Under the pieces are notes generated by a model that saw nothing but the letters and a program-made list of their open reading frames with translations, was not told where the DNA came from and did not search any database. Source: Cyathus striatus (taxonomy: Eukaryota > Basidiomycota > Agaricomycetes > Agaricales > Nidulariaceae). Taken from it: a DNA stretch of 64,000 bases. Each line of letters opens with the position of its first letter. The stretch's first letter is position 1. Shown here in pieces: positions 4,112 to 63,324 of the stretch. A program made the translations under genes and the position numbers. The stretch spans positions 5,952,001 to 6,016,000 of the forward strand of contig JAOVFP010000006.1 in the NCBI GenBank assembly GCA_025738555.1. The letters run 5' to 3'.

Positions 4112-4121
4112 CTAATCATAA

Positions 4122-4715
4122 GTGTCAGCCATCGTGATCATTTACCATAGAACTAGCAGAATATTACTATGCTCAAATGTGATCATTTACATAGAACTAG
4201 CTAATTGCTCATGCTCAAATGTGATCATTTACCATAGGACTAGCAAAATATTCCCATGCTCAAATGTGATCATTTACATAAAACTAGCTAATTGCTCACA
4301 CTCAAATGTGATCATTTACAATAATACTAGCAGAATATTCCCATGCTCAAATGTGATCATTTACATAGGAATAGCTAATTGCTCACACTCAAATGTGATC
4401 ATTTACTATAATACTAGCAGATTGTTCCCATGCTCATATCTGATCATTTACAATAGGACTACCACAGTATTCACACACTCAAATGTGATCATTTATGATA
4501 ATACTAGCAGAATATTCCCACACTCAAATATAATCATTTATGATAATACTAGCAGAATATTCCCATGCTCAAATATGATCATTTATGATAGGACTAGCAG
4601 ATTGTTCCCACACTCTAGGTTGTTCATGTATGTCACATGTGTGACATATGTCACATATGTCACATATGTTACATATTCCAACACATCACATTTATTCACA
4701 TTTTGTTCACATGTC
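4122..4715. repeat. left-arm tandem arrays of element A
   Basis: About eleven units of 42-45 bp (core AAATGTGATCATTTA then AACTAGC) fill 4130-4610. A shorter zone of TGTCACATATG repeats follows to about 4690. Two unit types alternate, one with CTAGCTAATTGCTC and one with CTAGCAGAATATTCC. The mirror copy lies at 9815-10806. The long open frame across 4122-4742 is a by-product of stop-free periodic sequence. Confidence 0.85.
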
Positions 4716-5091
4716 ACACATCTCTCATTTGTAATACTGTAACATTTAAATGAGTTTGAAATAGGCAAAATGTTGACATCATTTGATGCTTTCTGACATG
4801 TGACTGTCAAATTATTAAAATGGTAAATTTATCACAAGTTGCATTTTCACAGTATTATGTTAGTCAGACATCTCATATATATCACATTTTATGTTTCAAA
4901 ATCTGATGGTAAATGTGACGAAATGATCACACAGCAGATATTTGCAATTCTGTAACAATGAAAATTGAACAGTAGTGAGCACTGTTAAGAGAGACACAAG
5001 AAATCATATAGCCCATTGGTTAGTCAAGAAAAACATCTGATTGGCTGATAGAAAGTGTGACAAAGGAGGGGTGTTAGCCAATTTGATCATG

Positions 5092-5139
5092 AAAAGCCCA
5101 GGATTTATGATTGCCACAATCATAAGAGCCAGGGCTTTT
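5092..5139. repeat. subterminal hairpin, left end of C
   Basis: AAAAGCCC pairs with GGGCTTTT, and TTATGATTG pairs with CAATCATAA around a CCA loop, with small mismatches between the two stems. The mirror-image copy is at about 9064-9111. Similar near-terminal inverted repeats occur in foldback L and, more weakly, in B. Confidence 0.75.
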
Positions 5140-5149
5140 TTTGATCACC

Positions 5150-5745
5150 TACTATTATATATTTACTAATGAATCTATAGGTTACTTATGAATCTAGTGG
5201 TGATCATAAGTGATCATAGGTGATTTTAAGTGCATATTCACATACTATTACTACTAATGATTCCAAGGTGATCATAGGACCTATTATTATTACTAATGAT
5301 TTCCAAGATGATCATAGGTGATCATGGGCCATTTCAAGTGTGTATTCACCTATTATTACTACTAATGGTTTTCAAGGTGATCATAGGTGATCATAAGCCA
5401 TTTCAAGTGTGTATTCACATATTATTACTACTAATAATTTCAGAGGTGATCATTGGCCATTTTAAGTGTGTACTCACCTATTATTATTACTAATGATTTT
5501 CAAGGTGATCATAGGTGATCATGGGCCATTTCAAGTATGTATTCACCTATTATTATTACTAATGGTTTCCAAGGTGATCATAGGTAATCATAGGTTATTT
5601 GAAGTGTGTCTTTGCCTATTATTACTAATGATTTCAGAGGTGATCATAGGTGATCATAAGTTGTTTCAAGTGTGTATTCACCTATTATTATTACTAATGG
5701 TTTCCAAGGTGATCATAGGTGATCATAGGTGATTATAGATCTCAT
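5150..5745. repeat. TGATCA tandem array, left arm of C
   Basis: About eight units of 60-70 bp share GGTGATCATAGGTGATCAT, a variable TTTCAAGTGTGTATTCACC part and a run of TATTATTACTACTAATG. The complementary array occupies about 8460-9050. Open frames with LLLLLM repeats here are artefacts. Confidence 0.8.
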
Positions 5746-5759
5746 CTATATTAGCAAGC

Positions 5760-6490
5760 ATCACATTTGTCACATTTTTCCTGCGCTTCATACATGTCAC
5801 ATCTATTCACACGCGTCACAGTCGTCACACATATTCACACGTGTCACAGTTGTCACATACATTCGCACGCGTCACAGTTGTCACACATATTCACACGCGT
5901 CACAGTTGTCACATCTATTTGCATGCATCACAGTTGTCACACATATTCGCACGCGTCACAGTTGTCACATCTATTTGCATGCATCACAGTTGTCACACAT
6001 ATTCGCACGCGTCACAGTTGTCACATCTATTTGCATGCATCACAGTTGTCACACATATTCGCACGCATCACAGTTGTCACACATATTCACACGCATCACA
6101 GTCGTCACATCTATTTGCATGCATCACAGTTGTCACACATATTCGCACGCGTCACAGTTGTCACATCTATTTGCATGCATCACAGTTGTCACACATATTC
6201 GCACGCATCACAGTTGTCACATCTATTTGCATGCATCACAGTTGTCACACATATTCACACGTGTCACAGTCGTCACACATATTCACACGTGTCACAGTTG
6301 TCACACATATTTGCACATGTCACAGTTGTCACACATATTCACACGCGTCACAGTCGTCACACATATTCACACGTGTCACAGTTGTCAAACATATTTGCAC
6401 ATGTCACAGTTGTCACACATATTCGCACGCGTCACAGTTGTCACATCTATTCACACGTGTTACATTGTCACACATACTCACCTGTGTCAC
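5760..6490. repeat. 28-bp TGTCACA tandem array, left arm of C
   Basis: About 23 head-to-tail copies of a 28-bp unit of the form GTTGTCACACATATTCGCACG then CGTCACA. Variation is concentrated at CpG sites: CACGCG, CACGTG, CATGCA and CACGCA alternate at the same position. The right-arm array at about 7990-8420 has only about 13 copies. All forward frames stay open because the unit has no stop in any of them. Confidence 0.85.
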
Positions 6491-6719
6491 ATTTGTCACG
6501 ACGTCACGCACGTCACACATATCATACTTATTTCCCACGAATCGTTTTTGTCATGCGTGTCATGCTTTACATGTGTGTTATATTGGTGACACTTTTCATG
6601 CTTATCACACTTGTCACATTTTTACACTTGCATGCTTTGCACACCTATCATGCCTTTGTTGTTCACTTTGCATGTGTTACATTTGTCACAATTTTCACTG
6701 CTTAGTAATGTAATTTGGT

Positions 6720-7780
6720 TTTGATATTGACAACATATTTAAATTTGAAAACTATGTTAGAGGAGGATACTCTACATATCACTTGTTATGCTCTACTAGC
6801 TCATTATAGTTTTCATGTGTATGATACTCTTGATGCATGTCATGTGTCAAGTTTGTTGAGTTCTCAATTTGCATGTCATTTGTCATATTACTCACTTGTC
6901 ACATATTTCACATGCAACACAAGACTTTTTAGTTATTTGAAACAATATATAACTGTAAGTATGTGTACTTAACTTTGCTTCTTACATTTGCTCACACTTG
7001 TGGAGCATGAAAGTACAGTAGGGAGGAGAATTATGGTATAACATGTGTGTGGTTACCTGTATATCTATACCATTGTTCAAATTTTCACAGAACAGAAGTA
7101 TTCAAAAGTACAGAGTAAATCATTAAAGCAAAGGAAACAAATATGTTCTTGTTAAATTGAAGATTATGACATGGAATATGACAACCAGTAAATTATGGAA
7201 AGTGTTACAGTAATAATCAACTAGAATGGACCATGTAGAGTGTGTATGTAAGTCCATTGTAATTTTACAATCAAGATTAGAGATGTGATATGGTAGTATT
7301 GAATATTTTCATATTGAAAAATTTGATAATATATCCACACATGGACAAAAAATGTGAAAGGATGGTGAAATATGTGATTCTACATAACATTAAACTTACA
7401 CATCTCAGTCATTAGATGATTATAATTCTTGTATGACTACTTGTTATACTGATATCTTCAATACACATTATTGAGTCATATAACTGCTTACTCTATATGA
7501 CTACATGACAGTTTGCTTTATTGATACAGAGAGGTAATGGATACAATCTTAACTCTTATTCATATTGTATCACAATCAGTTTCACATGTACACTGCCATA
7601 TGTTGTTTATACTTATATGTGGAAAGCATGAGTTAATCTTTGAGTCAAGCATATGACAACTGGCAGGATCAACCAGGTAACCACTCAGATAGCAACAGCA
7701 AGTGGTCCATGCACATGCTACTGCTAAGTATACTCTACTTAACATAGTTTCCAAATTTAGATATGTGTTAATATCACAGG
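6720..7780. other. unique centre of element C
   Basis: About 1.06 kb of AT-rich, non-repetitive sequence separates the two arms. No coding region was recognised on either strand. It holds the 16-mer TGACAACTGGCAGGAT near 7654, which also appears in the centre of element E near 15432. Confidence 0.6.
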
Positions 7781-7789
7781 CTAAATTAC

Positions 7790-9050
7790 ATTACTAAGAT
7801 GTGAAAGTTGTGACAGATGTAACACATGCAAAGTGAACAACAAAGGCATGATAGGTGTGCAAAGCATGACAAGTGTAAAAATGTGACAAGTGTGACAAGC
7901 ACAAAAAGTATCACCAACATGATGCACATGACAAAAATGATTCATGGGAAATAAGTATGATATGTGTGACATGCGTGACGTCGTGACAAATGTGACGCAG
8001 GTGAATATGTGTGACAATGTAACACATGTGAATAGATGTGACAACTGTGATGCGTGCGAATATGTGTGACAACTGTGAAGCGCGGGAATTTATGTGACGA
8101 CTGTGACGCGTGTGAATATGTGTGACAACTGTGACGCGTGCGAATATGTGTGACAACTGTGACGCGTGTGAATATGTGTGACAACTGTGACGCGTGCGAA
8201 TATGTGTGACAACTGTGATGCATGCAAATAGATGTGACAACTGTGACGCGTGCGAATATGTGTGACAACTGTGATGCATGCAAATAGATGTGACAACTGT
8301 GACGCGTGTGAATATGTGTGACAACTGTGACGCGTGCGAATGTATGTGACAACTGTGACGCGTGTGAATATGTGTGACGACTGTGACGCGTGTGAATAGA
8401 TGTGACATGTATGAAGCGCAGGAAAAATGTGACAAATGTGATGCTTGCTAATATAGATGAGATCTATAATCACCTATGATCACCTATGATCACCTTGGAA
8501 ACCATTAGTAATAATAATAGGTGAATACACACTTGAAACAACTTATGATCACCTATGATCACCTCTGAAATCATTAGTAATAATAGGCAAAGACACACTT
8601 CAAATAACCTATGATTACCTATGATCACCTTGGAAACCATTAGTAATAATAATAGGTGAATACATACTTGAAATGGCCCATGATCACCTATGATCACCTT
8701 GAAAATCATTAGTAATAATAATAGGTGAGTACACACTTAAAATGGCCAATGATCACCTCTGAAATTATTAGTAGTAATAATATGTGAATACACACTTGAA
8801 ATGGCTTATGATCACCTATGATCACCTTGAAAACCATTAGTAGTAATAATAGGTGAATACACACTTGAAATGGCCCATGATCACCTATGATCATCTTGGA
8901 AATCATTAGTAATAATAATAGGTCCTATGATCACCTTGGAATCATTAGTAGTAATAGTATGTGAATATGCACTTAAAATCACCTATGATCACTTATGATC
9001 ACCACTAGATTCATTAGTAACCTATAGATTCATTAGTAAATATATAATAG
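7790..9050. repeat. right-arm tandem arrays of element C
   Basis: The arm is the reverse complement of the left arm: a TGTGACA zone with the 28-bp unit (about 7990-8420, about 13 copies), then the TGATCA units (8460-9050). Several positions that are CpG in one arm are TpG or CpA in the other, for example in the TTTCCCACGAATCG segment of the left arm versus the matching segment near 7935-7950. Confidence 0.8.
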
Positions 9051-9144
9051 TAGGTGATCAAAAAAAGCCCTGGCTCTTATGATTGTGGCAATCATAAATC
9101 CTGGGCTTTTCATGATCACAATTGGCTGACACTAATGGACAAAG

Positions 9145-10300
9145 ATATAAGTAATGTGACAATAGAAGTAATAATTGAATGGAATAACATGTGATGAAGA
9201 TACAGAATACATATTAAGGTTAGTTAGACAAAATTAGTATCTAAGTACAGTTATGTCTACTATAGAATCTGACTGTCTTATTAAAACATAACATTGTGAT
9301 TACCAGAAAGTAGTGTTGACACAATGTGATTTCAGCTTAGTGCTATGAATGCTGAATTCAACCAATACAGGTAAACAGTAAGAGAAAATGTGATTTTCAT
9401 AAAGTAGTCAAGTGCCTTTGCCATATAATTTGTAATGTGCATGAATCACTTAGTGAGCACCTTTCATGTGACCTTTTCATATGACATGTGTGATGTGTGT
9501 AGGGTCTGTGTGACTGTTGGGTGTGCAAATGAAAGTAAAAATGCAATTTTATTTTTTGACAAGGAGAAAGTACCATGACAAGCAAGTGATATGAGAAGGA
9601 AGTGTGATATATGTGACAAATGTGAGAATATAACAGGTGTAATATTGACATATAAGAGATGTATAACATGTGTAATGAATATAATGGTTGTAACAGATGT
9701 TGTGTGACATGAATTTGGAAATGTAACCTATGTGACTACATGACAGGAGTATTATACAAGCAAATGTGAGAAGTTTGACAGCTAAGTGTGACAGCTATAA
9801 ACAACAAGACAAATGTGGAATATATGTAAGAGTGTGATATACATGATAAAATGTGACATATGTAAAAGTGTGATGTGTGTAACAAAATGTGACGTGTCTA
9901 AAAGTGTGACATGTGTGACAACGTGTGACGTGTTTAAATGTGTGACATGTGTGACAATATGTGATGTGTTTAAATGTGTGACATATCTAAAAGTCTGACA
10001 TGTTTAAAAGTGTGACATGTGTGACATGTGTGACAATGTGTGACGTGTTTAAATGTGTGACATGTGTGACATGTCTAAATGTGTGACAAAATGTGACATG
10101 TCAAAAAGTGTGACATGTTTAAAAGTGTGACATGTGTGACATGTGTGACAATGTGTGACGTGTTTAAATGTGTGACATGTGTGACGTGACAAAAAGTGTG
10201 ACATGTGTGACAAAATGTGACATGTGACAAAATATAATGTTTGTGACAATGTGTGACATGTGTAAATGTGTGACATATGTGACATATGTGACATACATGA
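9145..10300. repeat. centre and inner TGTGACA zone of element A (right part)
   Basis: Bases 9145-9810 are unique AT-rich sequence of the A centre. From about 9815 to 10300 come irregular repeats of GTGTGACATGTGTGACA with interspersed GTTTAAA and AAAAGTGTGAC, the counterpart of 4620-4690. No gene is seen. Confidence 0.7.
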
Positions 10301-10806
10301 ACAACCTAGAGTGTGGGAACAATCTGCTAGTCCTATCATAAATGATCATATTTGAGCGTGGGAATATTCTGCTAGTATTATCATAAATGATTATATTTGA
10401 GCGTGGGAATATTCTGCTAGTATTATCATAAATGATCACATTTGAGTGTGTGAATACTGTGGTAGTCCTATTGTAAATGATCAGATATGAGCATGGGAAC
10501 AATCTGCTAGTATTATAGTAAATGATCACATTTGAGTGTGAGCAATTAGCTATTCCTATGTAAATGATCACATTTGAGCATGGGAATATTCTGCTAGTAT
10601 TATTGTAAATGATCACATTTGAGCATGAGCAATTAGCTAGTTCTATGTAAATGATCACATTTGAGCATGGGAATATTCTGCTAGTCCTATGGTAAATGAT
10701 CACATTTGAGCATGAGCAATTAGCTAGTTCTATGTAAATGATCACATTTGAGCATGGGAATATTCTGCTAGTATTATAGTAAATGATCACATTTGAGCAT
10801 AGTAAT
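10290..10806. repeat. right-arm TGATCA array of element A
   Basis: Reverse complement of the 4130-4610 array, with the same alternating unit types. It is broken at 10806 by element D and resumes at 12289 for the last 58 bp of A. Confidence 0.85.
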
Positions 10807-12288
10807 CATCAGGAAAATCCCCATCTGCTAAAATAGTGATATTAGTAGAAATAAGCTTTGCCCATATCCAAATGTTACTAATATCAGGTAATTCATACTT
10901 AATTGTACTTTTATTATCTATTGTGAAGCATGATAAGTGTTCATAAGTATAGTACAATGGCGAGGTAAACTTATTTGTACTTATATTACCTATTTTGAGG
11001 CATGATAAGTGTTCATAAGTTTGGTACAATGGTCACACTTACTTGTACTTATTGCCTAGTATAAGAATGATATGTGTCAATAAGTTTTACAGGAATTAAG
11101 CAATTTTAGCATACTATACCAGTTATACTTAAAGCAAGTCAACTTTATGACAATTCCATTTCACAAAGAATTTCATCTGAAACACTATGCATTAAGTTTA
11201 ATTTTACACAATACATACATGTACAATAAATTATAGTATAAATTGTAGTTAAGAACCATTGTGGTAGGGGAATACACAATATATATAGTAATGCACATAC
11301 ATTGAAGGTTTAAATGTTTAAGTTCAAAACTTCAAATGGCAAGTGAGAAAGTTAGCATGTGATCGCTTCACTGTGTTTGGCTTTGATAGTATGTATCACG
11401 TGCATGTTGAACTTGACACGTCAACGATCTATCAATGTCATACTGACGTTCCTTTCAATTCCCCCACCTTTCCTTCCTTCCTCTCCCTCCTTCCCCTGCC
11501 TGTCACTTGTGCCCATTCGTCTAGCAAGATTCATGTTTTCTATTTCAAGATCCAACTCACATACAGTGCTCCCCTACTTCCGCTCTACGCACCACTTACA
11601 CCAGTCTCTTGCATGCCATACAAGTATCTACCACTGGTCTCACAAGATTTCCACCTGCTGGGCTCATACTCCACTCAAGATGGTCTTTGTTCTCTGGTAT
11701 GTATTTGAGTTGTCTTCCTTTTTTAAGTGTGTGCTCATTGAGTGGTGTTGCTGAATGATAGAGAGTGGGGGATATGGGTGGAGATGTGGGGCTGGATGTT
11801 GTGGGGCTGGGTGTTATGGGGCTGGATGTTATGGGGTGCACTTGTTGTCATTGAGTGGTGCTGCTGGATGATGGAGAGGGGTGGGATATGGGTGGATATG
11901 TGTAACTGGATATTTTGGAGTGCATATGTTATATTTTGAGTGGATTGTTGTAAGTAGATATGTTATCTATATGTTACTACAATCACTTTATTGTAATACA
12001 ATAATAATATATAATTAACTGACACCTATTATACTGCACTGAGTGAAAGAACAGTGTGCTTATAAGCATCTAGGTTTTGTTTATGTGTGCTTATTACACT
12101 TTAAATGAACTATTCAGTCCTTATCTGAACTAAAATTGTGTAAATAAGGTCAAAAAAGGATGGGATAAGGAGTACCCCTTACTATTTTCACTAATAGTAT
12201 TTATTTCCTTTTTTTGACCTTATTTTCGCTTTTATTCACTTAAATCTCCTAAAATTTACTATTTAAGCAAGTGAGGTTTTTCCTGATG
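10807..12288. mobile_element. TIR element D inserted in the right arm of A
   Basis: The insert begins CATCAGGAAAA and ends TTTTCCTGATG. The left arm of A supplies the uninterrupted sequence (its complement reads AGTAATATTCTGC), which shows that D sits on a duplicated AT dinucleotide (10805-10806 and 12289-12290). D is 1482 bp. It contains two to three copies of a unit with CATGATAAGTGTTCATAAG (10925-11080), a CT-rich stretch at 11460-11510, a G-rich ATGTTATGGGGCTGG repeat at 11780-11840 and an internal inverted repeat around 12145-12230. No transposase was recognised, so it is non-autonomous. A 2-bp duplication recalls Tc1/mariner-like elements but the sequence does not prove it. Confidence 0.65.
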
Positions 12289-12479
12289 ATATTCTGCTAG
12301 TTCTATGGTAAATGATCACATTTGATCACGATGGCTGACACCACTCTTCTAATAGAAATTTCAGTGGAAGTAGAAAGTATCATAAGCATTGACTTCATAC
12401 TTCCAGTATACCCTTCTGTGTCAATATTGGTTATTAATTGGTGAGCACATCCCAGTGTGTCAGGGCAAATAAAACAATA

Positions 12480-13240
12480 ATGATCTCTTGGGGTTCATTG
12501 TGTGGTCACAGTAGCAACTTCAAGTGAACATTATAGCCTAGTATGAAGTCACTTCCTTCTTCAACTCCCAGCTGTTATATCATGTAGAATTATGTTTTGG
12601 TAAGTCCATGGCATCCATACTTTACATTTTTCCATCAGTGTTGATGAGCTTCTGTACTTCCTGTGATATATTTCCACTATGAAAATATGAAGAAAATTAA
12701 TATGGTACAAATGGACCTAAATATGGGTGCAGCAATACATTATTCAAGGTGGTTGCATGTGGGTATGCTGTAATAAATACATAAATACAAACTCTGGAAA
12801 ACTTCATTCTGTCACCAGCTCCAGAAACAAGCAATATCCAGCGCTAGCTAGGACATTCAATGTCTAACTCCAGTGTTTAATGTAGTTATTCTTGTACAGA
12901 TGCTTAAAGGCACTGTATAATCACCTTCAGTCGACGAGGTCATTGGAATATTGTGGATAATAAGTTAGTATTGAAAAAATAGAACCATGGCCTGTTAGAC
13001 GCTGTAAAAAAGTATCAGCATCAATCATATGGAAGCAGATGACACGACAGCCCTCAAAATATCAGAGAATGCAATGACCATGAAATTATGGCTAAGCGCT
13101 AAGTACTGATCAGCACTGTTATTCCTTGCAAGCATTTTGCTGGATTTGGCATACAAAAATTTCATGGAAGTGTAACTTGGAGTTCTGAGACACGGAGGTG
13201 CCTAGCATTAACCTGCACTATTTTATTGTATCTTCAGAAT
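12480..13240 (-). pseudogene. eroded gene relic, possible family-2 (unspecific) peroxidase
   Basis: Read on the minus strand, short coding-like pieces appear in changing frames: GAGD then PYLGPF; DGK..SMDAMDLPKHN; LHD; and LGYNVHLK. Order and spacing recall the heme-thiolate peroxidase (chloroperoxidase/UPO) segment with KHN..EHD and FGDNVHFN. The frames are broken by several stops and shifts, and the proximal heme cysteine motif PCP is not visible, so this is a dead fragment at best. It lies directly beyond element A, in the same orientation as the DUF5648 exon. The family call is tentative; it could be another secreted enzyme gene. Confidence 0.25.
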
Positions 13241-13739
13241 CTGGTAATCTTCATGTTTTTTTCTGTTGAATAATAGTTCTTAGAGTTGGGCACATAGAAA
13301 ATTCCAGGCATGCACAAAAGTGAGTGTGATTGAGCATGTCACATTCAAGGTATTTATTTTAGCTCTAAATGGCCTATTGTGAATGTGAGTGATGTTTATA
13401 ATCAAGATATGAAGTCAAATCTTGAAGAATAATATTTATACTTCATGCTCAAACATGTGCATGCACACTCATGTTCATGCTCAAGGTGTGAGCATGGATT
13501 GAGTGTGCACACACACATCATGCTCAAGATTTTACTTCACGCTTGGGGTCAACATCTCATGCACAGGGTCCATACATTCATGCACAGGATCTGAGTTTTC
13601 ATGCTCAAGGTCATCAACTCATGCTCAAGGTCTGTCAACTCATGCTCAAAGTTTTTACTTCATGCTCACAAAAAAATTATATGTTACATTTATATTTTGG
13701 CTTCACTTACATGGGGAGGAAAAGTAAGTTGCAAGTGTA

Positions 13740-14450
13740 ATATATGTGAGCATGAATAGGAATACCAATCACACTCAGACATTGAGCATGAGTTTATTAC
13801 TTGTGAGTGTGAATGGGAATACTAATTATGCTCATGCTCAAGTTAAAGGACATTGAGCATGAGTGTAATACTTGTGAGTGTGAATAGGAATACCACACTC
13901 ATGCTCAAGTTAAAGGACATTGAGCATGAGTGTAATACTTGTGAGCATGAATAGGAATACCACACTCATGCTCAAGTTAAAGGACATTGAGCATGAGTGT
14001 AATACTTGTGAGCATGAATAGAAATACCACACTCACACTCAAGTTAAAGGACATTGAGCATGAGTGTAATACTTGTGAGCATGAATAGGAATACCACACT
14101 CATGCTCAAGTTAAAGGACATTGAGCATGAGTGTAATACTTGTGAGCATGAATAGGAATACCAAGCTCAAGTTAAAAGACATTGAGTGTGAGTGTAATAC
14201 TTGTGAGCATGAATAGGAATACCACACTCATGCTCAAGTTAAAGGACATTGAGCATGAGTGTAATACTTGTGAGCATGAATAGGAATACCAATTATACTC
14301 ACACTCAAGTTGAATGTAAGTGTAATATTTGTGAGCATGAGTAAGAATACCAATCATGCTCATGCTCAAGTGAAACACAAGTGTAATATTTGTGAGCATG
14401 AGTAAAAATGCCAATCAAGCTCACACTCAAGTTAAAGGATATTGAGTGCA
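13740..14450. repeat. 67-bp tandem array, left arm of E
   Basis: About ten copies of a 67-bp unit: GAGCATGAATAGGAATACC, ACTCATGCTCAAGTTAAAGG, then ACATTGAGCATGAGTGTAATACTTGT split across the unit. The array is nearly free of CpG. Confidence 0.85.
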
Positions 14451-16386
14451 AGTGTAAATAAGTATTATAAATGTGATAGAATACCTATCATGCTCATGCT
14501 CAAATCAAAGGGCATTGAGTATGAGTGTAAATATAATACTGACATGCAGTTATACTATGCATATATGTGTGATAGGTAGTAATCTATCCTGTATTGCTCC
14601 CTGCTTTGTTGTGAATTTCCCTGCTTTGTTATTAAGCCCCCTTCCTTGTTCTGAAGTTCCCTACTTCGCTGTAAAGCCCCATTCTTTGTTTTGAATTTCC
14701 CAAGGTCTCTGCTTCACTGTGAATCTCCCCGCCTTGTTCTGAATTTTCCTGCTTCATTGTAAAGCTTCCTGTTATTTTCTGAGCCCCCTGCTTCATTATA
14801 AACTTCCCCTGTTTCTACTGTTCAATATATACCATTCTCTAGCTGTATAAATTTTTAACTGTTAGTCTGAATTACTGCTACACTCTCTGGGTCATTTTTT
14901 TAACTTGTAGGTCATATGTACACTCTCTGAATCATTTATATACACTCTAAGTCATATCTAAACACTCTGGATCATTGGTATACATTTTAAATCAATATAC
15001 ACTCATAAAGAAGACAATAACAATGAAACATATATAAAACCCACTGGTGTTCTTCAATTATTACATTGCAGTGCTTAGTATATACCAAATTGTATTAAAA
15101 ACATGCTTTACTATGCCAATCATTCAGTATGTAGTTGATATAAGACAGCCAGTTGGCTCACGCTCATATAAGGATTATTCACGCTCACATATAGAATATT
15201 CACGCACAGGGTCGAATTTTCACGCTCAATAGGTGAGCGTGCACGCTCAGGGTCTGCACGTGGAAATTTAACCCTGAGCGTGAATATTCTATATGTGAGC
15301 GTGAGGCAATATGTAAGTGAGCGTGAAGCAATAAGTTGTCATAAATCTACTACTATTATAAATACACACTGTACTACTACATGCATATGGTCTACCTGAA
15401 AAGCATATATACTCAAATAGGTCATAAATTACTGACAACTGGCAGGATTGAATGATATTGATTGCGTGAGCGTGATGTATTGATTTACTTGAGTTTGAGC
15501 GTGAGCGTGAATAGGTATTACGCTCACGCATATTTATTAGTATAACTTGTGCGTGAATGTTATATTCACATACCTACTCGATAGAATAGAGTTTGCACGT
15601 GAGCGTGATAATACTATTCACGCTCATGCATGTTTTTAGAGCTCACTCTCAACTTAAAGGAATTTGACAGTGAGCGTGAAGTACTGAGTGTGAGCGTAAT
15701 GGGGATTCCTATTTACACTGATGCATTCTATTTACTGCTTCATGCTCATATGTATCTCCTTTGACTTGAGTGTGATCACAGTGGTAGATCTCCTATTCAC
15801 ACACATGCTTATGTCCTATATCTTTGGGGAGTGCAAATATAATATTTACATTCAGGCACACTCTCAATTTAATTGAGTTAGAGCATGAGCATGATAGGTA
15901 TTGCTATTCATGCTCACGCATATCCTATAAATTGAGTGTAAATAGTGTCCATAAATATTATACTTAAGTTCACGCTCAAGTTAATCAAGTTTAAAAGTGA
16001 GTGTGAATTTAAGACCTTGAGCGTGAAGTAACATACCTTGAGCGTGAAAATTCAGACCCTGTGCATGAAATTTCGACCCTGAGCGTGAATGCTTGACCCT
16101 GTGCGTGAAATAAAATCTTGAGCGTGATATGAGCGTGCACGCTCACACCTTGAGCGTGAAAAATGAGCGTGCACATTCAAGTTTGAGCGTGAATAATATC
16201 ACCTTGAGCGTGAAATTTAATTTTTATTCTTCTACTTCTGAGTATTTATCTTGCTTAAAAACTTTACCTGCGGTGGCAATAAGACTACAATAGTATAGTA
16301 CCAGTATGTACACTTGATTTACGGTTAGTTTAACTTAGAAATAGGCTATTTACAACTATTAAATATATCTTGAGCGTGACACGCTC

Positions 16387-17338
16387 CAAGAGGTGACAGA
16401 TCCTCCGATTACGGACGTCCATGATGTCAAGAGTAGGGGGGGGGGTACTCTACGTTTTTGGTTAGTCCTTGCGTACGGCAAGTCGGCATGCACTAACGAG
16501 CTGCAGGCAACTGCAGGTGTGGTTAGTCTTCCGAATAAGTAACAATACCTTTTGACATCGTTTCCCTAAGTACTTAACATTTGTGTTCGAGTGCTCTGCG
16601 CAACATTCATGAAATAGTTGCTGTAAGATTGTTGAAAAGTTTTTTTTACTGTGTAATATGTACGTATACCCAAGTAAGTAAGTGAAACATACCTCAGGCT
16701 GGCATCAAGCGGTGAAATTTAAGCAGAATAGCCATATGTACATATCATCTGCAGCGCGAAGCTTTGAAGTTTTGAAGTTCGATGTATTAGAATTAAGATA
16801 CCTATAAAAATGTTTGTAATTATTCATTAACAGACTGCTGGGTATTATGATCGTATAATACTTGCTGGACCTAACGTGTGTGCTCAGCAGTAGAGGTGAT
16901 GTATATGTTACCAGTATATGCCCATTGTTCAATGTTCAGCGGAAACTATCTTATTTTCTCAACAATATTGTTTCCTATATACTCCACATACCTATCCTCT
17001 AATAATATCCTAACTCCTCCCATACCAATTACACAGTTGGCGGGAACTGGGAAGACTCTAGGCTTCAACTAAGTATTTCTCCATCAGAAATAGGAGTATT
17101 TTATTCGTAATAAAACTGTAAATTCAAAGTACATATTGGTGCACATTTAAAAACGCCATCCCACATATACTCAGCTTCTTTCCCGGTTCTCTTATGGGCA
17201 GACAAATGTGGATGAAGTACGGAGGGGAGCTACAATTGCTGTTGCGCCACTTGCTAAACCATTGACCGCCGATGATGCCGCTGTCATGCTCGCGTGGCGG
17301 GATGCAGCGTCCAAGATCGGAGGATCTGTCACCTCTTG
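16387..17338. mobile_element. hAT-like MITE inserted in E, 8-bp TSD
   Basis: A 952-bp insert begins CAAGAGGTGACAGATCC and ends with its inverse GGATCTGTCACCTCTTG. It is flanked by the perfect 8-bp duplication ACACGCTC (16379-16386 and 17339-17346). Eight-bp duplications and C-A-rich TIRs are typical of hAT elements. Only short open frames are present, so it depends on a transposase in trans. A run of G lies at 16437-16445. The neighbouring hAT gene at 17490-18745 is a possible but unproven source of transposase. Confidence 0.8.
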
Positions 17339-17489
17339 ACACGCTCACCCATTGAGCGTGAAAATTTGGCCTTGAGCGTGGCACGCTCAGTCACACTCAC
17401 TTTTGTGCGTGCACGGTAAAAACTACGTGCCCTTTCTTTTCCACAGCGTTGATTGCTGTTCTTCAAAATTTCGAAATCACTATATCTAG

Positions 17490-18745
17490 ATGATTTGAGA
17501 AAGCAACGGTTAATGGTAGTACATGATGTACGTACACGTTGGAACTACACACATGCAATGATTCAAAGGGGGTTGCTACTAAAAGAGGTGAGTTGCGTAA
17601 ATTAAATGCTCCAGCCGAGAGTTAGTGACAATTGTCATTTAAGGCGATTGACAAATGGACATTCGACATACCAGCGCTACGTGGACAGGTCTTGACACCT
17701 GATTCCTGGAAATACTTGGAAAGAATTGCGGATCTTTTTGAGGTATGTATCAGCTACTTTAAGATTATAAAACCTATTCAAATATATGTTTACATTGACA
17801 GCCCTTCACCAAAGTGACTGAGCAAATGTCAACATCTTCACGTCCTACCATTCCTTTCGTGCTTCCTCTCTATGAAGTAATGGAGCGACATCTCTTGAAG
17901 GCTATGAATGATAATAAGCTTTCCTTTAAAGTGCAAACTGCCGCATCGAGTGCAAACGAAAAGTTGCAGAAGTACAAATCTGCCGCCATTGGAAATCAGT
18001 ACTATATAATAGGAACGAGTAAGTAACAATATTAGATCTTCATAATAACGATTACTTATCTATTATATTTCTTTTAGTTCTTCATCTGAATTTGCGAGCA
18101 AATTGGTTCAAAACAACAGTTTGTAATGTTGGACAAGGGATAGCATTTCAAAAAGAACAGGATGAAGCTGTCGAAAAGGCCACTGTTTTATTTACTCACA
18201 TTGTGCAAACCTACTACAAGAACTCACCGTTGAAAGATCAAGAACAGTCACAGAGCAATAAGAAAACAGCGAGCACTACAGAGAATAACTGGTTAGAAAA
18301 TGTGTGCAATGTTGATGCCTTCGTACCAGAGAGGTTGGTAATGATAAAGGAAAGTTGAAAGGATGAAGTAGAACGTTACCTTCGCTTCGAAGGAGGGACG
18401 TGTGACTTAAATGACCCCCTTTCATGGTGGAAGGTACATTATTAATATTGTGATATAGCTAAAATAGCTGAGCTGTCGAACTAATGAATTCTATAGAAGC
18501 ACTGCCATTCCTTTCCTACACTTTCCAGAATGGCACGCGACTTTCTTGTTATACCTGCTACTAGTGTTTCTGTTGAACGGGTATTTTCAAAGTCTCGCCA
18601 CATTTGCTCAGATCTTCGAAGTTCACTCAAAGCAGAAACTATACGCAAAGCACTTCTAGCAAAAGTATGGATTCGTGATGGACTTCTTGATGCCAATCCA
18701 CCAACAATGAAGCAGAAGAAGCACGGTGATGTCAGTAACATGTGA
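17490..18745 (+). pseudogene. hAT transposase, C-terminal half, one nonsense codon
   Basis: Five exons join in phase: about 17490-17587 (TRWNYTHAM), 17643-17742 (AIDKW), 17802-18017, about 18079-18433, and 18497-18745. The four introns are about 55-63 nt with GT...AG ends. TRWN, AIDKW and the final ARDFLVIPATSVSVERVFS (hAT C-terminal dimerisation region) are diagnostic of hAT transposases, which cut and paste DNA in the nucleus. The BED zinc finger and first catalytic part are missing. Element E ends just upstream and may have replaced them. An in-frame TGA at 18356-18358 (ES*KDE) interrupts exon 4, consistent with CGA to TGA. The copy cannot make full-length protein. Confidence 0.75.
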
Positions 18746-20353
18746 CATTTTGGATGCACATGATCTATCTGTCTATATACTAGTTATATACAGTTAAATA
18801 GTGTGTAGAAACCATATATGTATATTTACGCCTTTCAGAGTATACATATACTATATAGTTGGAGCCTTAGACCTGAGATAGACTGCACCTTGGCCTTCTT
18901 TTTTATCATCAGGTTTAGCTAGGGAATAGCATTGGTAACCCCCAGGTGCATTGAATGTGACACATATCCATACCCATGGGAAAGTGTACAGGTTTGGCGC
19001 AGGTTTCAATACCCATGGCTAACCCAGGGGTTTTCATGCAATAGAATTTAGAATGCATTCCACAGTGTATAATGAAAGAGTCATTAGATACATAAGTAGT
19101 ATTAAAATTTACTATTTTTTTTATAGAGAAAGTAGGCAATAGCCAGCGCAACTTTGACTGCAATAGCAAATCACAGCACTTGGGAATGAAACAAAGGGAA
19201 TAAGTAGTACAATAAAACACTGGCAGAGCAAATCAGTACTGCTTGAGAATAAAATAAAGAGAGTAAGGGTGAGGTTGAGAGCTTAAAAATGAAGCAATGT
19301 CCAGAGATCTTGAAAATGAAGTGCTGAGCATCACAAAGTAATGATGTTCAAAACATGCCAACAACTTTATATACAAATCACAGACTTTGAGAATGAAGCA
19401 CATAGGATTATAACGAAGCAAATACCTTAAGAACAAATTAGAGACCTTGAAACGGAAGCACAGAACTTTAAATCGAAGCACAGAGTATTATAACAAATTT
19501 GAGACCTTGAAAGCAATGCACAGACTTTGAGAATGAAGAACAGAGTATTATAACGAAGCAATGCCATTCAGAACGAACCAGAAACCTTGAAAACAAAACA
19601 CAGACTTAGAACTCAAAGCAGACCTTTCTAACAAAGCAATGACCTTCAGAACCAACTAGAGATCTGTAAATTGATTGAACTTAACGAAGCTGGGAGTGTT
19701 TGAACAAGCCCAGACGAATAAGAATGATGTTGGGAGTGTCTAGACAAGCCCAGAGATTTTGCAACGAAGTTGGAAGTGTTTGTACAAGTCAAAAGGAGTT
19801 AAAACGAAGATGAGAGTGTCTGAACAATCCCAGGGGATTTGCAACGAAGCTAGAGGTGTTTGAACAAGCCCAGAAGACTAGAAATGAAGTAAGGAGTGTT
19901 TGAATAAGCCGAGAGTATTGGGAACGAATCTGAGAGTGTTTTAACAAGCCTAAAGGGTTCACAACGAAGCTGATGAGATATTGACAATGATAGAGGGGTA
20001 TTCAAGAAGCTGGAGGAGTATTCATGAAGATGGATAAGTATCACAAAAGATGTTCATGTTTAAGTGATCCCAGACGAGTTGGAATAAAACTAGAAGAGTG
20101 TTCATGAAGATACACACATTTTTGCAAACCGAGAGAGTAGTAGGATCAAATTTAGAGGTGCATTAGCAAAGCTAGACATATTTTAACGAGTCCAGCAAAT
20201 TAACAGATGAGTAAGAATGAATATATACAAGTACTTACAAATCTAGACTTGTTTCAATGAGTTCAGAGAGTTAGAATGAAGCTAGAGGATCATTAGCAAA
20301 GTTAGACAAATTTAAAAGAACTGAGGCAAGTAGAAACAAAGCTAGTTGATTTG
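18746..20353. repeat. non-coding stretch with degenerate tandem repeats
   Basis: No gene is seen. Bases 18925-19035 carry ATACCCATGGG and GGTAACCC motifs, echoed in inverse form at 29620-29730. From 19190 to 19660 a degenerate unit of about 40 bp contains GACCTTGAGAATGAAGCACAG. From 19680 to 20340 a unit of about 55 bp contains AACGAAGCTGGGAGTGTTTG and ACAAGCCCAGA. The first type resembles the interior of element F (46830-47200). Since the copia at 20354-29400 splits this region, 18925-29730 may be one older element, but matching ends were not proven. Confidence 0.45.
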
Positions 20354-21179
20354 TGTTGGAATTAATACTTGAATATTACAGATAATACACAAAGTCTGTA
20401 GAGTATGTTAGAATGTTGTGGAAGTGTGTAGAATATATATCACGAACATTATAGATTATTCTAGTTACAAAATACATGTGCATAAACATAAGTGTCAGCC
20501 AATTTGGATCATAAAAAGCCCAGGTTTTATGAAAAAGTGATCACAAAATCCCTGACTTCCATGATTACTGCTAAAATCTAATGGTATTCATTATTATTAA
20601 TGAATGTATGAGTGATCAAAGGTGATCATTGGATGTTATAATAGTGTATGATGGATATTAAAGGGCATATTGACTACTAATGAATACTAATGAATGTGAA
20701 AGTGATCATAAGTGATCATGATATGATATAATAGTGTATTATAGTGCATAATGACTACTAGTGAATACTAATGGATGTGTAAGTGATCATAAGTGATCAT
20801 GGTATGTTGTAATAGCATATTATAGTGCGTAATGACTACTGGTGAATACTAATGGATGTGGAAGTGATCATAAGTGATCATGGTATAGTATAATGGTGTA
20901 TTATAGTGTGTAATGACTACTAGTTAATACTAATGAATGTGGAAGTGATCATATGTGATCATGATATGTTATAATAGTGTTTTATAGTGCATAATGACTA
21001 CTGGCAAATACTAATGAATGTAGAAGTGATCATAAGTGATCATGGTATGTTATAATAGCATATTATTGTGCGTAATGCTTACTAGTTAATACTAATAAAT
21101 GTAAAAGTGATCATAAGTGATCATTGTATAAATAATAGCATATTAATTTATAAATGAATATAGGAATATCACATTTTCC

Positions 21180-22300
21180 CACATGTCACACCTGTCACGC
21201 TCGTCACATCCGTCACATATATCACGAGTGTTATGAATGTCATGCTCCACATATTTGTCACATATGTCATGTATGTCACGTATGTAGCATTTGTCATACT
21301 TGTCACACTTGTTGTGTATGTCACGTATGTCACACCTGTTATGTACGTCACATTTGTCACACCTGTCACGTATGTCACGTATGTTGCATTTGTCATACTT
21401 GTCACACTTGTTATGTATGTCACATTTGTCACACCTGTCACGTATGTCACGTATGTTGCATTTGTCATACTTGTCACACTTGTTATGTATGTCACATTTG
21501 TCACACCTGTCACGTATGTCACGTATGTTGCATTTGTCATACTTGTCACACTTGTTATGTATGTCACATTTGTCACACATGTCACGTATGTCACGTATGT
21601 CACATATATTGCATTTGTCATACTTGTCACACTTGTTGTGTATGTCACGTATGTCACATATATTGCATTTGTCATACTTGTCACACTTGTTGTGTATGTC
21701 ACGTATGTCACACCTGTTATGTACGTCACATTTGTCACACCTGTCATGTATGTCATACGTGTCACAGTACAAATGTCACGCTCCTCATATTTGTCACACC
21801 TGTTGTATATGTTATGTATGTAGCATTTGTCACACTTGTCACACTTTTTATACATGTCACACCTGTTATGTATGTCACATTTATCATGCATATCACATTC
21901 TTACATGTCATACTTGTCAGATTTGTCACACTTGTCATGCATATCACATTTATTTTATATGTCACACTTGTCAGATTTGTCACACTCGTCACATATGTCA
22001 CACATTTTACTACTGGTCATATATATCACACTTATTACTCTCATCTGTCACAAATGTCATGCTTTCCACATCTGTCACCCTTTTTCCTGTCTGTTATACC
22101 TGTTGCACTCTTCAAGCATCATTCATATAACACTTATCATATTTTACACATTTGTCACATTTCTTACATATTTGTCACATTTTCCATGTCTGTTATATCT
22201 GTCATATATTTTCTCTCATTTTGTTACACTTTTCTTACATGTCACATTTTTCAGTTATATTACACATCATACTTCTATAAATATTACATACATTACAAAT
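21180..22300. repeat. 72-bp TGTCAC tandem array, left arm of B
   Basis: Units of 72 bp (ACGTATGTCACGTATGTTGC, then ATTTGTCATACTTGTCACAC, then TTGTTATGTATGTCACATTTGTCACACCTGTC, given in parts) repeat about four to five times and then become irregular. Seventy-two is a multiple of three and the unit has no stop on either strand, which explains the overlapping 'proteins' of 200-412 residues with CHTC/CDKCD repeats. I see no evidence that they are translated. Confidence 0.85.
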
Positions 22301-22329
22301 TGAAGATTCTATTTCATTCCCCTACTTCA

Positions 22330-23380
22330 AACCTGTTTTGGTGAACACATCTTTAGTGTACCAATCTTAAGTATTAAAATAGAAACATATGACTTGCTAT
22401 AATATATCTGAACACAAAGAACTGCATTGTACACAGCACACAAGTTGAAGTCAATGATCCTTATGTTTCTGATCTTTGTCAAAGCTCACATCAGTATTTA
22501 GACATTCATACAGTTACATGTGTAATAATTGTCTCAAGAATCTCATGTCAAATATGATATATATGACACTATGCCATCTGCAATCAGTTTGAAATTGTCA
22601 AGATTGATAGCCTTCACTGAGTTATGAGAATTATTCATTTTAAGCACTCACATGATTGTTACATTTAACTACTTGTATTATTTAAGTCTCAGATGAGAGT
22701 GAGCTGAGAGTCAGTTGAGACATCTGTGAGAATGATACATACAACAGCTGGTTATGTAGTAGTTCTTGCTTATGAATAGATAAGTACTAGTAGGATATGA
22801 AAACAGTATCATATTGACATCAAGACTTGAGACATTAGAAAGTTATAAGTTTTAACAATAACATGGAACTATAGTAGAATGAGTGACATGAATAAAACAA
22901 TACAATTGGACTAAACATGAAGTGAGACAAAGAGATAAGAGATGTGATAGTGGGAAAGTAGTATACAGTTAGTACTATATGATATATGAGAAAAGATGTG
23001 ATGGATGTGGTGAATAGGGAAAGTGTGAAATGTGCAACTTGTCAGGAAAGTTGCAACAGGTGGCAGGAAAGGTACAATGTTAGATGTTCTGGGTTGTACA
23101 GCCTCTGGTTCAGGACTTGGTAGAACTTTGGTTGATAACTCTAGTATATAAACCCCCTGTAATTTGATAGTTGACCACAAGTTTCCTCCTATTTGTATTT
23201 GTGTCTGTCTGTGTCTGTGCCTGTATCTGAGCTTTTCATCTCTTATCACCCCCCTCTCTCCCAACCTACCCCCCTTCATTATTTGTTGCTTCAAATGACA
23301 ATTGGTGGCAGAAATGGTGTGATGGGTAGCAGGAAAAGAAAAAGCATGGCATGTGGTAATATAGGGGGACATATGTGACA
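22330..23380. other. unique centre of element B with promoter-like stretch
   Basis: About 1 kb of non-repetitive sequence. A TATATAAACCCCC box at 23149-23160, followed by a pyrimidine-rich tract to about 23280, looks like a basidiomycete promoter reading rightward, but no gene follows. Nothing else was recognised. Confidence 0.4.
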
Positions 23381-23929
23381 AGTGGTAAAATTTGTGACAG
23401 ATGTAATCTGTATGGCAAGTAAATTTACTTGTGAGATCAATATGCTAACAATGATATGTGGGAAAGGTGTAAATGTAAAGCATAACAAGTGTGATATGGG
23501 TGCAAGTGTAACATACAGGAAAGGAATGACAAATACAGAAAATGTGACATTTGTAACATATAGGGAAGGCGTGACATTTGTGACAGATGGGACTGATAAG
23601 TGAAACATATGTGACAAGTAGTAAAATATGTGACATATGTGACGAGCGTGACAGGTGTGACGAATCTGACAAGCGTGACATATAAGAATGTGATATGCAT
23701 GACAAATGTGACATACATAACAGGTGTGACATGTATAAAAAGTGTGACAAGTGTGACAAATGCTACATATATGACATATACAACAGGTGTGATAAATATG
23801 AGGAGCATGACATTCATACTGTGACATGTATGACATACATGAGACATGTGACATACATGACACGTGTGATATATGTGAGATGTGTGACATATGTGAGACA
23901 TGTGACATACATGAGACGTGAGACGTGTG

Positions 23930-24790
23930 ACATACGTGACAAATACGACAGGTGTCACATACGTGACATACACAACAAGTGTGACAAGTATGACAAATGC
24001 AATATATGTGACATACGTGACATACGTGACATGTGTGACAAATGTGACATACATAACAAGTGTGACAAGTATGACAAATGCAACATACGTGACATACGTG
24101 ACAGGTGTGACAAATGTGACATACATAACAAGTGTGACAAGTATGACAAATGCAACATACGTGACATACGTGACAGGTGTGACAAATGTGACATACATAA
24201 CAAGTGTGACAAGTATGACAAATGCAACATACGTGACATACGTGACAGGTGTGACAAATGTGACATACATAACAAGTGTGACAAGTATGACAAATGCAAC
24301 ATACGTGACATACGTGACAGGTGTGACAAATGTGACGTACATAACAGGTGTGACATACGTGACATACACAACAAGTGTGACAAGTATGACAAATGCTACA
24401 TACGTGACATACATGACATATGTGACAAATATGTGGAGCGTGACATTCATAACACTCGTGATATATGTGACGGATGTGACGAGCGTGACAGGTGTGACAT
24501 GTGGGAAAATGTGATATTCCTATATTCATTTATAAATTAATATGCTATTATTTATACAATGATCACTTATGATCACTTTTACATTTATTAGTATTAACTA
24601 GTAAGCATTACGCACAATAATATGCTATTATAACATACCATGATCACTTATGATCACTTCTACATTCATTAGTATTTGCCAGTAGTCAATATGCCCTTTA
24701 ATATCCATCATACACTATTATAACATCCAATGATCACCTTTGATCACTCATACATTCATTAATAATAATGAATACCATTAGATTTTAGCA
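23930..24790. repeat. right-arm arrays of element B
   Basis: Reverse complement of the left arm. The 72-bp GTGACAAGTATGACAAATGC unit repeats about five times from 23940 to 24340, ends with the same irregular stretch as the left arm, and is followed by the TGATCACTTATGATCACTT array. One visible difference between arms (GTCATGCTCC at 21238 versus GTCACGCTCC in the inverse at about 24440) is a CpG-to-TpG change. Confidence 0.85.
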
Positions 24791-24940
24791 GTGATCATGG
24801 AAGTCAGGGATTTTGTGATCACTTTTTCATAAAACCTGGGCTTTTTATGATCCAAATGGCTAACACCCCTCGCATAAAAGATGTAACAAATTACCTAGAA
24901 TATATCAGTTTATCCCCTCTTTACTGCGCTACCTGCTATA

Positions 24941-29198: not shown

Positions 29199-29205
29199 GG
29201 GGGAG
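29199..29205 (+). other. copia polypurine tract
   Basis: The purine run AAGGGGGAG, which begins inside the stop codon, lies directly before the TGTTGG start of the 3' LTR. Confidence 0.7.
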
Positions 29206-29400
29206 TGTTGGAATTAATACTCGAATATTACAGATAATACACGAAGTCTGTAGAGTATGTTAGAATGTTGTGGAAGTGTGTAGAATATATATCACGAACA
29301 TTATAGATTATTCTAGTTACAAAATACATGTGCATAAAAGATGTAACAAATTACCTAGAATATATCAGTTTATCCCCTCTTTACTGTGCTACCTGCTATA
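29206..29400 (+). repeat. copia 3' LTR
   Basis: The 195-bp LTR starts TGTTGGAATTAATAC and ends CTGCTATA. It is uninterrupted and has one GCATAAA where the 5' LTR carries element B. It differs from the 5' LTR at three sites, each a CpG/TpG or CpG/CpA difference. Confidence 0.88.
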
Positions 29401-63250: not shown

Positions 63251-63265
63251 GTATCAGCCAAATTT

Positions 63266-63324
63266 CTCATTTAAGCTCGACGTTTTATGATATTTCATAT
63301 CATAAAACGTCGAGCTTAAATGAG
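63266..63324. repeat. perfect 28-bp stem hairpin near the L terminus
   Basis: CTCATTTAAGCTCGACG begins a 28-nt arm, followed by a TTC loop and an exact inverse arm. It starts 20 bp inside the element end, comparable to the subterminal hairpin of C. Confidence 0.92.

What the first reader, a model, noticed from the sequence alone, without database searches (positions are those of the whole stretch)
4117..24871. Foldback transposon family with asymmetric CATAAG/GAGKG termini and perfect 7-bp target duplications
Seven ends in the window share the core GTGTYAGCC (GTATCAGCC in L). One side of each element reads CATAAGTGTCAGCC (CATTAG in C), the other GAGKGGTGTYAGCC. The three complete elements each have a perfect 7-bp duplication: A TTCTAAT, B GCATAAA, C GACAAAG. 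All three have the same arm plan: terminus, a TGATCA tandem array of about 45-70 bp units, a TGACA-type array (28 or 72 bp units), and a unique centre. The array sequences differ between elements, so the architecture is conserved rather than the sequence. None encodes a transposase. Long TIRs made of tandem repeats plus 7-bp duplications are known from Drosophila Galileo and 1360 (P superfamily). I know of no described basidiomycete family with these termini, but could not search.
Basis: partly seen in the sequence, partly recalled or inferred. Interest (0 to 1): 0.92.

Follow-up and report, generated by a model that had tools for sequence, protein, structure and literature searches.

The report
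Foldback jumping DNA of KDZ transposons
These are enzyme-less jumping DNA elements with long repetitive mirror-image arms, found in hundreds of copies in a fungal genome, and they are most likely moved by the transposase of much larger KDZ transposons that carry the same ends.

Summary
A, B and C have perfect 7-bp target duplications (TSDs); L, cut by the window edge, has one too. Paralogous empty sites prove insertion of B and C. Genome-wide there are 445 CAT-type and 430 GAG-type ends (reversed-pattern controls 2 and 2). Of 40 fetched CAT/GAG pairs, 25 have a perfect 7-bp TSD, 3 have one mismatch and 12 fail; of 8 like-ended pairs tested, none has a TSD. The arm plan is general: about 0.6 kb rich in TGATCA (another array in some copies), then an inward-oriented TGTCAC zone.

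The partner is not a P element. Pairs of the same ends, 16-22 kb apart, enclose CxC2-KDZ transposase genes; of seven such pairs tested, two have perfect TSDs, one 6/7, four none. Foldback copies with TSDs are identical to one of these KDZ elements over 66 subterminal bp; B and L each match both ends of another. A and C have no such match yet.

So this is a large non-autonomous foldback family of the KDZ superfamily, nearest Kyakuja by TSD length. Most unusual: arms are near-identical (median 97%) but the outermost five bases differ between the two ends, as if only unlike ends transpose. New variant of a known kind.

The parts
4117..12346 (+). Element A, foldback; CATAAG end at left, GAGTG end at right; contains element B and a PlavakaB-type insertion
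4110..4116 (.). TSD of A, TTCTAAT (other copy 12347-12353)
12347..12353 (.). TSD of A, TTCTAAT
4134..4610 (+). A left arm, TGATCA tandem array, 45/87-bp units (right-arm copy 10314-10800)
10314..10800 (-). A right arm, TGATCA tandem array
5066..9137 (-). Element B, foldback nested in A; GAGGG end at left, CATTAG end at right; arms 5084-6184 and 8018-9118, 98% complementary
   Evidence: empty site
5059..5065 (.). TSD of B, GACAAAG
9138..9144 (.). TSD of B, GACAAAG
5084..5147 (+). Subterminal palindrome of B (left copy)
   Evidence: fold z -8.2, right-end copy
5279..5729 (+). B left arm, TGATCA array, 69-bp units
5795..6499 (+). B left arm, TGTCAC array, 28-bp units
20487..24871 (+). Element C, foldback in the 5' LTR of a Copia element; CATAAG end at left, GAGGG end at right
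20480..20486 (.). TSD of C, GCATAAA
24872..24878 (.). TSD of C, GCATAAA
20655..21145 (+). C left arm, TGATCA array, 81-bp units
21250..21762 (+). C left arm, TGTCAC array, 72-bp units
29205..29404 (+). Copia 3' LTR segment that holds the empty site of C (one GCATAAA)
63246..64000 (+). Element L, CATAAG end and left arm; the element is 5,017 bp and ends at contig C6:6020262, outside the window
63239..63245 (.). TSD of L, GTTGAAT (other copy just after C6:6020262)
63266..63324 (+). Subterminal palindrome of L
   Evidence: fold z -13.2
63332..64000 (+). L left arm, 57-bp ACTCAT-rich tandem array

Best explanation
A, B, C and L are non-autonomous foldback members of a KDZ (Kyakuja-Dileera-Zisupton) transposon family. 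The transposase is supplied by large relatives that carry the same two termini and a CxC2-KDZ gene. Shown: the termini, the 7-bp TSDs, the empty sites of B and C, the ends shared by foldback and KDZ-containing elements, and the two-zone arms. Inferred: the transposase recognises the end region (perhaps with help from the repeated TGATCA motifs in the arms), joins one CATAAG-type and one GAGKG-type end, cuts the element out and inserts it at a 7-bp staggered cut that repair turns into the TSD. Also inferred: the arms grow by tandem duplication and are kept alike by recombination, while the unlike terminal pentamers persist because only unlike ends transpose together.
For: Family-wide ends: 445 and 430 against controls of 2 and 2. 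TSDs: 25 of 40 unlike pairs perfect, 3 with one mismatch; shift controls 0 of 40 at each of ten offsets. Five of 20 KDZ loci on the searched stretch are enclosed by an unlike pair under 25 kb, against 1 of 28 hAT, 0 of 8 Plavaka and 1.9% of random places. Seven of 23 KDZ loci have an inward GAG end within 5 kb downstream; random mean 0.29, maximum 4 in 2000 trials. KDZ-containing C3:1980708-1998016 and C10:650773-668737 have perfect 7-bp TSDs, C2:4272055-4292479 has 6 of 7. Four foldback copies are identical over 66 subterminal bp, at one end, to the C3 element; two of them have perfect TSDs and one a one-mismatch TSD. B matches both ends of the C2 element at 87-88%; L matches both ends of the C10 element at 96% over 75-80 bp. 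CxC2 lies upstream of KDZ in the genes of all seven enclosed cases. Kyakuja elements make 7-bp TSDs (PMC12730594, section read).
Against: Four of the seven KDZ-containing pairs tested have no TSD (C3:2024640-2041956, C2:1201755-1218948, C1:7642204-7658611, and C1:1169594-1191773). Eleven of 40 foldback pairs have three or more mismatches. A (0.65) and C (0.68) do not exceed the reversed control (maximum 0.67) in subterminal match to the four KDZ elements compared, so for them the link rests on the terminal 14 bases, TSD length and arm plan. One KDZ-linked CAT arm (C1:1169594) has TGATCA repeats but no TGTCAC zone in the 914 bp read beyond 600 bp. No KDZ element was read whole, and intactness of any transposase was not assessed. 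One KDZ locus (C3:2102524) has a CAT end, not a GAG end, within 5 kb downstream.
Confidence: 0.9

Rival explanations
1. The family belongs to the P superfamily, like Galileo and 1360, and is moved by a P-type transposase.
For: Long tandem-repeat TIRs and 7-bp TSDs resemble Galileo (the finding; Galileo TIRs: PMC3688188, abstract and passages).
Against: KDZ genes, not P-type genes, lie between these ends in elements with TSDs. The P-type profile search found 0 matches in this genome, but 0 in controls as well, so it neither supports nor excludes.
Confidence: 0.02
2. A hAT transposase of the 7-bp-TSD kind (hAT7, described from rusts) moves the family.
For: hAT7 makes 7-bp TSDs (PMC12730594, passage); at least 151 hAT dimerisation-domain matches in this genome.
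Against: Only 1 of 28 hAT loci on the searched stretch is enclosed by an unlike pair, close to chance (about 0.5 expected), and that pair contains a shorter inner pair which leaves the hAT outside.
Confidence: 0.03
3. The Plavaka transposase gene just left of L (59680-63247) is part of L's element and supplies the enzyme.
For: The ORF chain ends at L's terminus.
Against: The TSD GTTGAAT brackets L alone and leaves the Plavaka ORFs outside. Plavaka families make 2-3 bp TSDs (PMC12730594, passage). 0 of 8 Plavaka loci are enclosed by an unlike pair.
Confidence: 0.01
4. The unlike termini reflect descent alone (a founder with two different tips) and not a rule of the transposase.
For: One common origin would give every copy the same two tips; like-ended products with TSDs might be rare by chance (only 8 like pairs tested).
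Against: Arms of the same element are homogenised to a median of 97% (three elements 100% over 286 bp) while the tips stay different; 0 of 8 like pairs have a TSD against 28 of 40 unlike pairs, p 0.0003.
Confidence: 0.45

Closest known systems
Kyakuja transposons of Agaricomycetes (PMC12730594: abstract, passages and section 3.2.1 read)
   Same: KDZ-type transposase; 7-bp TSDs; one end begins with CA.
   Different: Described with 5'-CA..TG-3' termini and no TIRs; here the second end reads GAG inward (element ends in CTC), and a core plus long arms form TIRs.
KDZ1, KDZ2 and KDZ3 of Cryptococcus neoformans (PMC12810828: passages read)
   Same: KDZ transposase with an extra zinc-chelating domain; large elements (9-11 kb) with TIRs (139-241 bp).
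   Different: CxC1 instead of CxC2; TSDs of 8 bp (KDZ1) or 4-8 bp (KDZ2, KDZ3); no foldback derivatives mentioned in the passages read.
KDZ elements of Marasmius oreades (PMC8290104: passages read)
   Same: KDZ DNA transposons of a mushroom with TIR motifs characterised.
   Different: The motifs are in a supplement that I could not open, so sameness of ends is untested.
Galileo of Drosophila, P superfamily (PMC3688188: abstract and passages; PMC2775673: listing only)
   Same: Long TIRs with internal tandem repeats, foldback-like; transposase binding sites shown inside the repeats; 7-bp TSD (from the finding and recall).
   Different: P-type THAP transposase, not KDZ; insects.
Tm1 of root-knot nematodes and MuTAnT of Medicago, Mutator-type foldback families (PMC3169594, PMC4486113: listing and start of abstract only)
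   Same: Foldback architecture attached to a known cut-and-paste superfamily.
   Different: Mutator superfamily; animal and plant hosts.

Membership tests
KDZ superfamily | KDZ transposase domain (PF18758) inside an element with these termini and a TSD | tested here: met
   Enclosed in seven tested pairs; 2 with perfect 7-bp TSD, 1 with 6/7, 4 without; exons hit PF18758 at 1e-13 and 1.8e-39. No element was read whole.
KDZ superfamily | Cysteine-cluster domain upstream of KDZ (CxC2, PF18803; that this is usual is recalled, CxC1 in PMC12810828) | tested here: met
   CxC2 directly upstream in the seven enclosed genes.
KDZ superfamily | Foldback copies share ends with the KDZ-containing elements | tested here: met
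   met for B, L and 36 of the 40 fetched copies at 0.70 or more; not met for A and C against the four KDZ elements compared.
Kyakuja | 7-bp TSD | tested here: met
Kyakuja | 5'-CA..TG-3' termini | tested here: not met
   One end starts CAT, the other end closes with CTC.
Kyakuja | No TIRs | tested here: not met
   KDZ-containing C3 element has near-identical ends for about 70 bp after the tip.
Kyakuja | Transposase groups with Kyakuja in a tree | not tested
   No reference transposases were at hand.
Zisupton | 8-bp TSD | tested here: not met
   Exactly 7 bp in 25 of 40 pairs; no pair matches at 8.
P superfamily (Galileo, 1360) | P-type transposase in the autonomous element | tested here: inconclusive
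   0 matches, controls also 0.
hAT7 | hAT transposase between the ends | tested here: not met
   1 of 28 loci enclosed, near chance.
Plavaka | 2-3 bp TSD and Plavaka transposase between the ends | tested here: not met
Foldback elements (structural class) | Long TIRs made of tandem repeats around a centre | tested here: met

The most novel reading that the evidence does not exclude
The KDZ transposase obeys an unlike-ends rule, comparable in effect to the 12/23 rule of V(D)J recombination (recalled): the two end types carry nearly the same arm and the same GTGTYAGCC core and differ only in the terminal pentamer (CATAA or CATTA against GAGTG or GAGGG), which decides which ends may be joined. Selection for this rule keeps five bases different at the tips of arms that are otherwise made identical.
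Probability: 0.4. Interest if true: 0.78.

Novelty: new variant of a known kind. Interest (0 to 1): 0.62.

Why it matters
It names the likely enzyme behind a foldback family of the order of 400 copies and adds the KDZ superfamily to those (P-type, Mutator-type) with long tandem-repeat arms. KDZ elements are a large share of mushroom DNA transposons (in Marasmius oreades about half of the DNA elements are KDZ or Plavaka; PMC8290104, passage), and I saw no account of how they recognise their ends in the passages I read. Natural elements with near-identical arms and different tips make a rule for end pairing directly testable, and such arms are a possible source of rearrangements.

Tried and rejected
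Plavaka as L's enzyme: dropped when L's right end and TSD were found. P superfamily: no support; the profile search is uninformative. hAT: not enriched between the ends. TET/JBP gene: 0 matches with 0 in controls, uninformative. A general subterminal hairpin: strong (z below -3) in 8 of 17 clusters of end sequences (KDZ_C3a, KDZ_C2a, B, L, L047, L050, L052, L075) and absent or weak in 9, among them A, C and the L039 cluster, so it is not a defining feature. Target preference: no clear consensus by eye in 31 TSD sites. Captured domains in foldback centres: ten frames gave no Pfam match.

What was left out of counts: pattern searches print only the first 100 of 445 and of 430 places; one search used all 100 listed CAT ends and 91 of the 100 listed GAG ends (nine beyond the CAT list's reach were dropped). 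Of the 8 like pairs five were tested, plus three like pairs seen. KDZ, hAT and Plavaka loci for searches were typed by hand from the printed rows; second exons of one gene and loci beyond the covered part of C3 were left out. Whole-end searches scored only the best 40 of 182, 149 and 97 candidates.
Full report
What is in the window. The seven ends are real and exceed chance: six exact GTGTYAGCC matches against 0.60 expected, with none of 100 shuffles reaching six, and GTATCAGCC at 63251. Three complete elements follow: A 4117-12346, B 5066-9137 nested in A, and C 20487-24871, each with a perfect 7-bp duplication. The fourth, L, starts at 63246 and leaves the window; a search with its first 100 bases found the other end, and the letters there show GTTGAAT on both sides of a 5,017-bp element. 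Each has one CATAAG or CATTAG tip and one GAGKG-type tip (GAGGC in L). I saw no transposase inside these elements in the ORF lists; of L only 3,399 of 5,017 bases were read in full.

Empty sites. C sits in the 5' LTR of a Copia retrotransposon (gag and pol domains). The 3' LTR at 29205-29404 is 98% identical to C's joined flanks over 200 bp and has GCATAAA once. B sits in A; six other A-family loci match across the joined site, and in the three shown the sequence runs through with one GACAAAG, L002 without a mismatch; a 31-bp gap lies about 40 bp further on and is unrelated. These two sites show insertion with a 7-bp duplication directly. For A no empty site was found among the loci held.

Genome-wide family. 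CATWAGTRTYAGCC occurs 445 times and GAGKGGTRTYAGCC 430 times in the 107-Mb assembly; the patterns read backwards occur 2 times each. Among the listed places used, adjacent ends that face inward within 25 kb are unlike in 55 cases and alike in 8. I fetched 40 of the 55 unlike pairs: 25 have a perfect 7-bp TSD, 3 have one mismatch, 1 has two, and 11 have three or more. Cross-paired flanks gave 1 of 1560 at no more than one mismatch, and shifts of 1 to 10 bases gave none. Eight like-ended pairs (6 CAT/CAT, 2 GAG/GAG) showed no TSD, with 4 to 7 mismatches; one of them, C3:736988-740842, has flanks that are inverted copies of each other. Fisher's test for 28 of 40 against 0 of 8 gives p 0.0003.

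Arm plan. In 43 elements (the 40 pairs plus A, B and C) TGATCA occurs at about 14 per kb in the outer 300 bp, against 0.38 per kb in background, and fades by 750 bp; TGTCAC rises to about 30 per kb between 750 and 1050 bp, against 0.46. The second motif is read inward more often than outward in 78 of 81 arms that have at least eight. TGATCA lies outside TGTCAC in 71 of 77 arms that have both. L and some other copies lack TGATCA in zone 1 (in L an ACTCAT-rich 57-bp array takes its place) but keep the TGTCAC zone. The plan is general while zone-1 sequence varies.

The enzyme. A search for KDZ transposases (PF18758) gave 159 matches. On C1, C2 and part of C3, 7 of 23 KDZ loci have an inward GAG end within 5 kb downstream and 1 has a CAT end there; 2000 random placements gave a mean of 0.29 and a maximum of 4 for GAG ends. 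KDZ loci are enclosed by an unlike pair under 25 kb in 5 of 20 cases; hAT in 1 of 28, Plavaka in 0 of 8, random places in 1.9%. With two more found through the end searches of B and L, seven KDZ-containing pairs could be tested for TSDs: C3:1980708-1998016 (17.3 kb) TCTACAC perfect; C10:650773-668737 (18 kb) TCGCAGT perfect; C2:4272055-4292479 (20.4 kb) 6 of 7; C3:2024640-2041956, C2:1201755-1218948, C1:7642204-7658611 and C1:1169594-1191773 none. The last may be a wrong pairing, since its GAG end also closes a shorter pair (L044). The C3:2024640 copy shares its CAT-side flank with C3:1980708, which points to a duplication or rearrangement. CxC2 (PF18803) lies upstream of KDZ in all seven, and two exons of the C3 gene hit KDZ at E 1e-13 and 1.8e-39.

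Foldbacks and KDZ elements share ends. Four foldback copies (L044, L048, L057, L068) are identical, at one end, over 66 subterminal bases to the C3 KDZ element; L048 and L068 have perfect TSDs, L057 one mismatch, L044 none. In all, 38 of 44 end sets reach 0.70 identity to a KDZ-element end, against 0 of 44 for reversed controls (maximum 0.67); A (0.65) and C (0.68) do not stand out. B's end matches both ends of the 20.4-kb KDZ element at 87-88% over 95-100 bp, and L's matches both ends of the 18-kb KDZ element at 96% over 75-80 bp. In six of the seven KDZ-containing pairs the gene points to the GAG end; in C2:4272055 it points to the CAT end, so gene direction and end type are not fixed to each other. 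Inversion of the interior by recombination between the arms would explain this; I did not test it.

The unlike ends. Between the two arms of an element the first five bases agree in 20% of positions (as a rule only the second base, A), the nine-base core in 96%, and bases 15-300 in a median of 97%; three elements have arms without a difference over 286 bp. Since the 40 pairs were chosen by the two patterns, I also looked at the searches with whole end sequences, counted by eye: 10 of 10 inward pairs (B itself among them) and 11 of 12 (L itself among them) have one end that aligns from the tip and one that aligns only from base 6-10; the twelfth is undecided. Against this, (C's CAT end) shows three inward pairs whose two ends both align from the tip; these are like-ended, and none has a TSD. 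So like-ended neighbours exist, but none tested looks like a clean insertion. The simplest reading is that the transposase joins only unlike ends. It remains an inference from 8 like pairs.

How it probably works. Shown: ends, TSDs, empty sites, shared ends, arm plan. Inferred: the CxC2-KDZ protein from the large elements recognises the end region, joins a CAT and a GAG end, and inserts with a 7-bp stagger. The repeats in the arms may be extra binding sites, as shown for Galileo (PMC3688188, abstract and passages). A strong subterminal palindrome occurs in 8 of 17 end clusters, so it cannot be essential. One KDZ-linked CAT arm (C1:1169594) has TGATCA repeats but no TGTCAC in the stretch read beyond 600 bp, so the second zone may belong to the foldback copies alone.

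What is known. Kyakuja elements of Laccaria make 7-bp TSDs, with CA..TG termini and no TIRs, while Zisupton makes 8-bp TSDs (PMC12730594, section 3.2.1 and passages). Cryptococcus KDZ1 makes 8-bp and KDZ2 and KDZ3 make 4-8 bp TSDs, all with TIRs (PMC12810828, passages). The KDZ end motifs of Marasmius oreades are said to be in a supplement that I could not open (PMC8290104, passages). My seven searches listed, among the rows shown, no paper whose title or abstract start describes a KDZ or basidiomycete foldback family; the library is open-access only. I therefore call it a new variant of a known kind: a KDZ-superfamily foldback family, nearest Kyakuja in TSD length, not filed as Kyakuja because its termini and TIRs differ.

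Limits. 

Noticed in passing
window 10807-12288: A 1,482-bp element with CATCA..TGATG ends (first 11 bp of the TIR perfect) and TSD AT inside A's right arm; matches the PlavakaB description in PMC12730594 and has no transposase seen.
   Followed up: partly
window 59680-63247: Plavaka/tnp2-type transposase ORF chain in several frames (Transposase_21 1.8e-9; Plavaka 2.4e-4 and DUF4218 3.6e-5 below their curated cut-offs), cut at its 3' side by element L. Foldback copy L073 (C2:8039565) lies next to a near-identical copy of the ORF at 56103-56666.
   Followed up: partly
window 20353-29404: Copia retrotransposon with a gag frame (25338-25925) and a 1,090-aa pol frame (25926-29198), its 5' LTR split by element C.
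   Followed up: partly
window 18491-18673: hAT dimerisation-domain match (C6:5970491-5970673) between A and C.
   Followed up: no
window 3623-4111: ORF on the minus strand with a DUF5648 domain (7.8e-10) that stops short next to A's insertion; A may interrupt this gene.
   Followed up: no
window 13599-16197: Tandem arrays with 67/134-bp and 20-bp units containing TGAGCATGAGTG-like words, outside the elements described.
   Followed up: no
C3:1980708-1998016 and C3:2024640-2041956: Two KDZ-containing elements of nearly equal size in opposite orientation about 27 kb apart that share one flank: an inverted duplication or a rearrangement through the arms.
   Followed up: partly
C11:3520890-3525584 and C11:2584311-2589003: Two CAT/CAT pairs that share the same right flank but differ in the left flank, again a sign of rearrangement or duplication at an element.
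   Followed up: no
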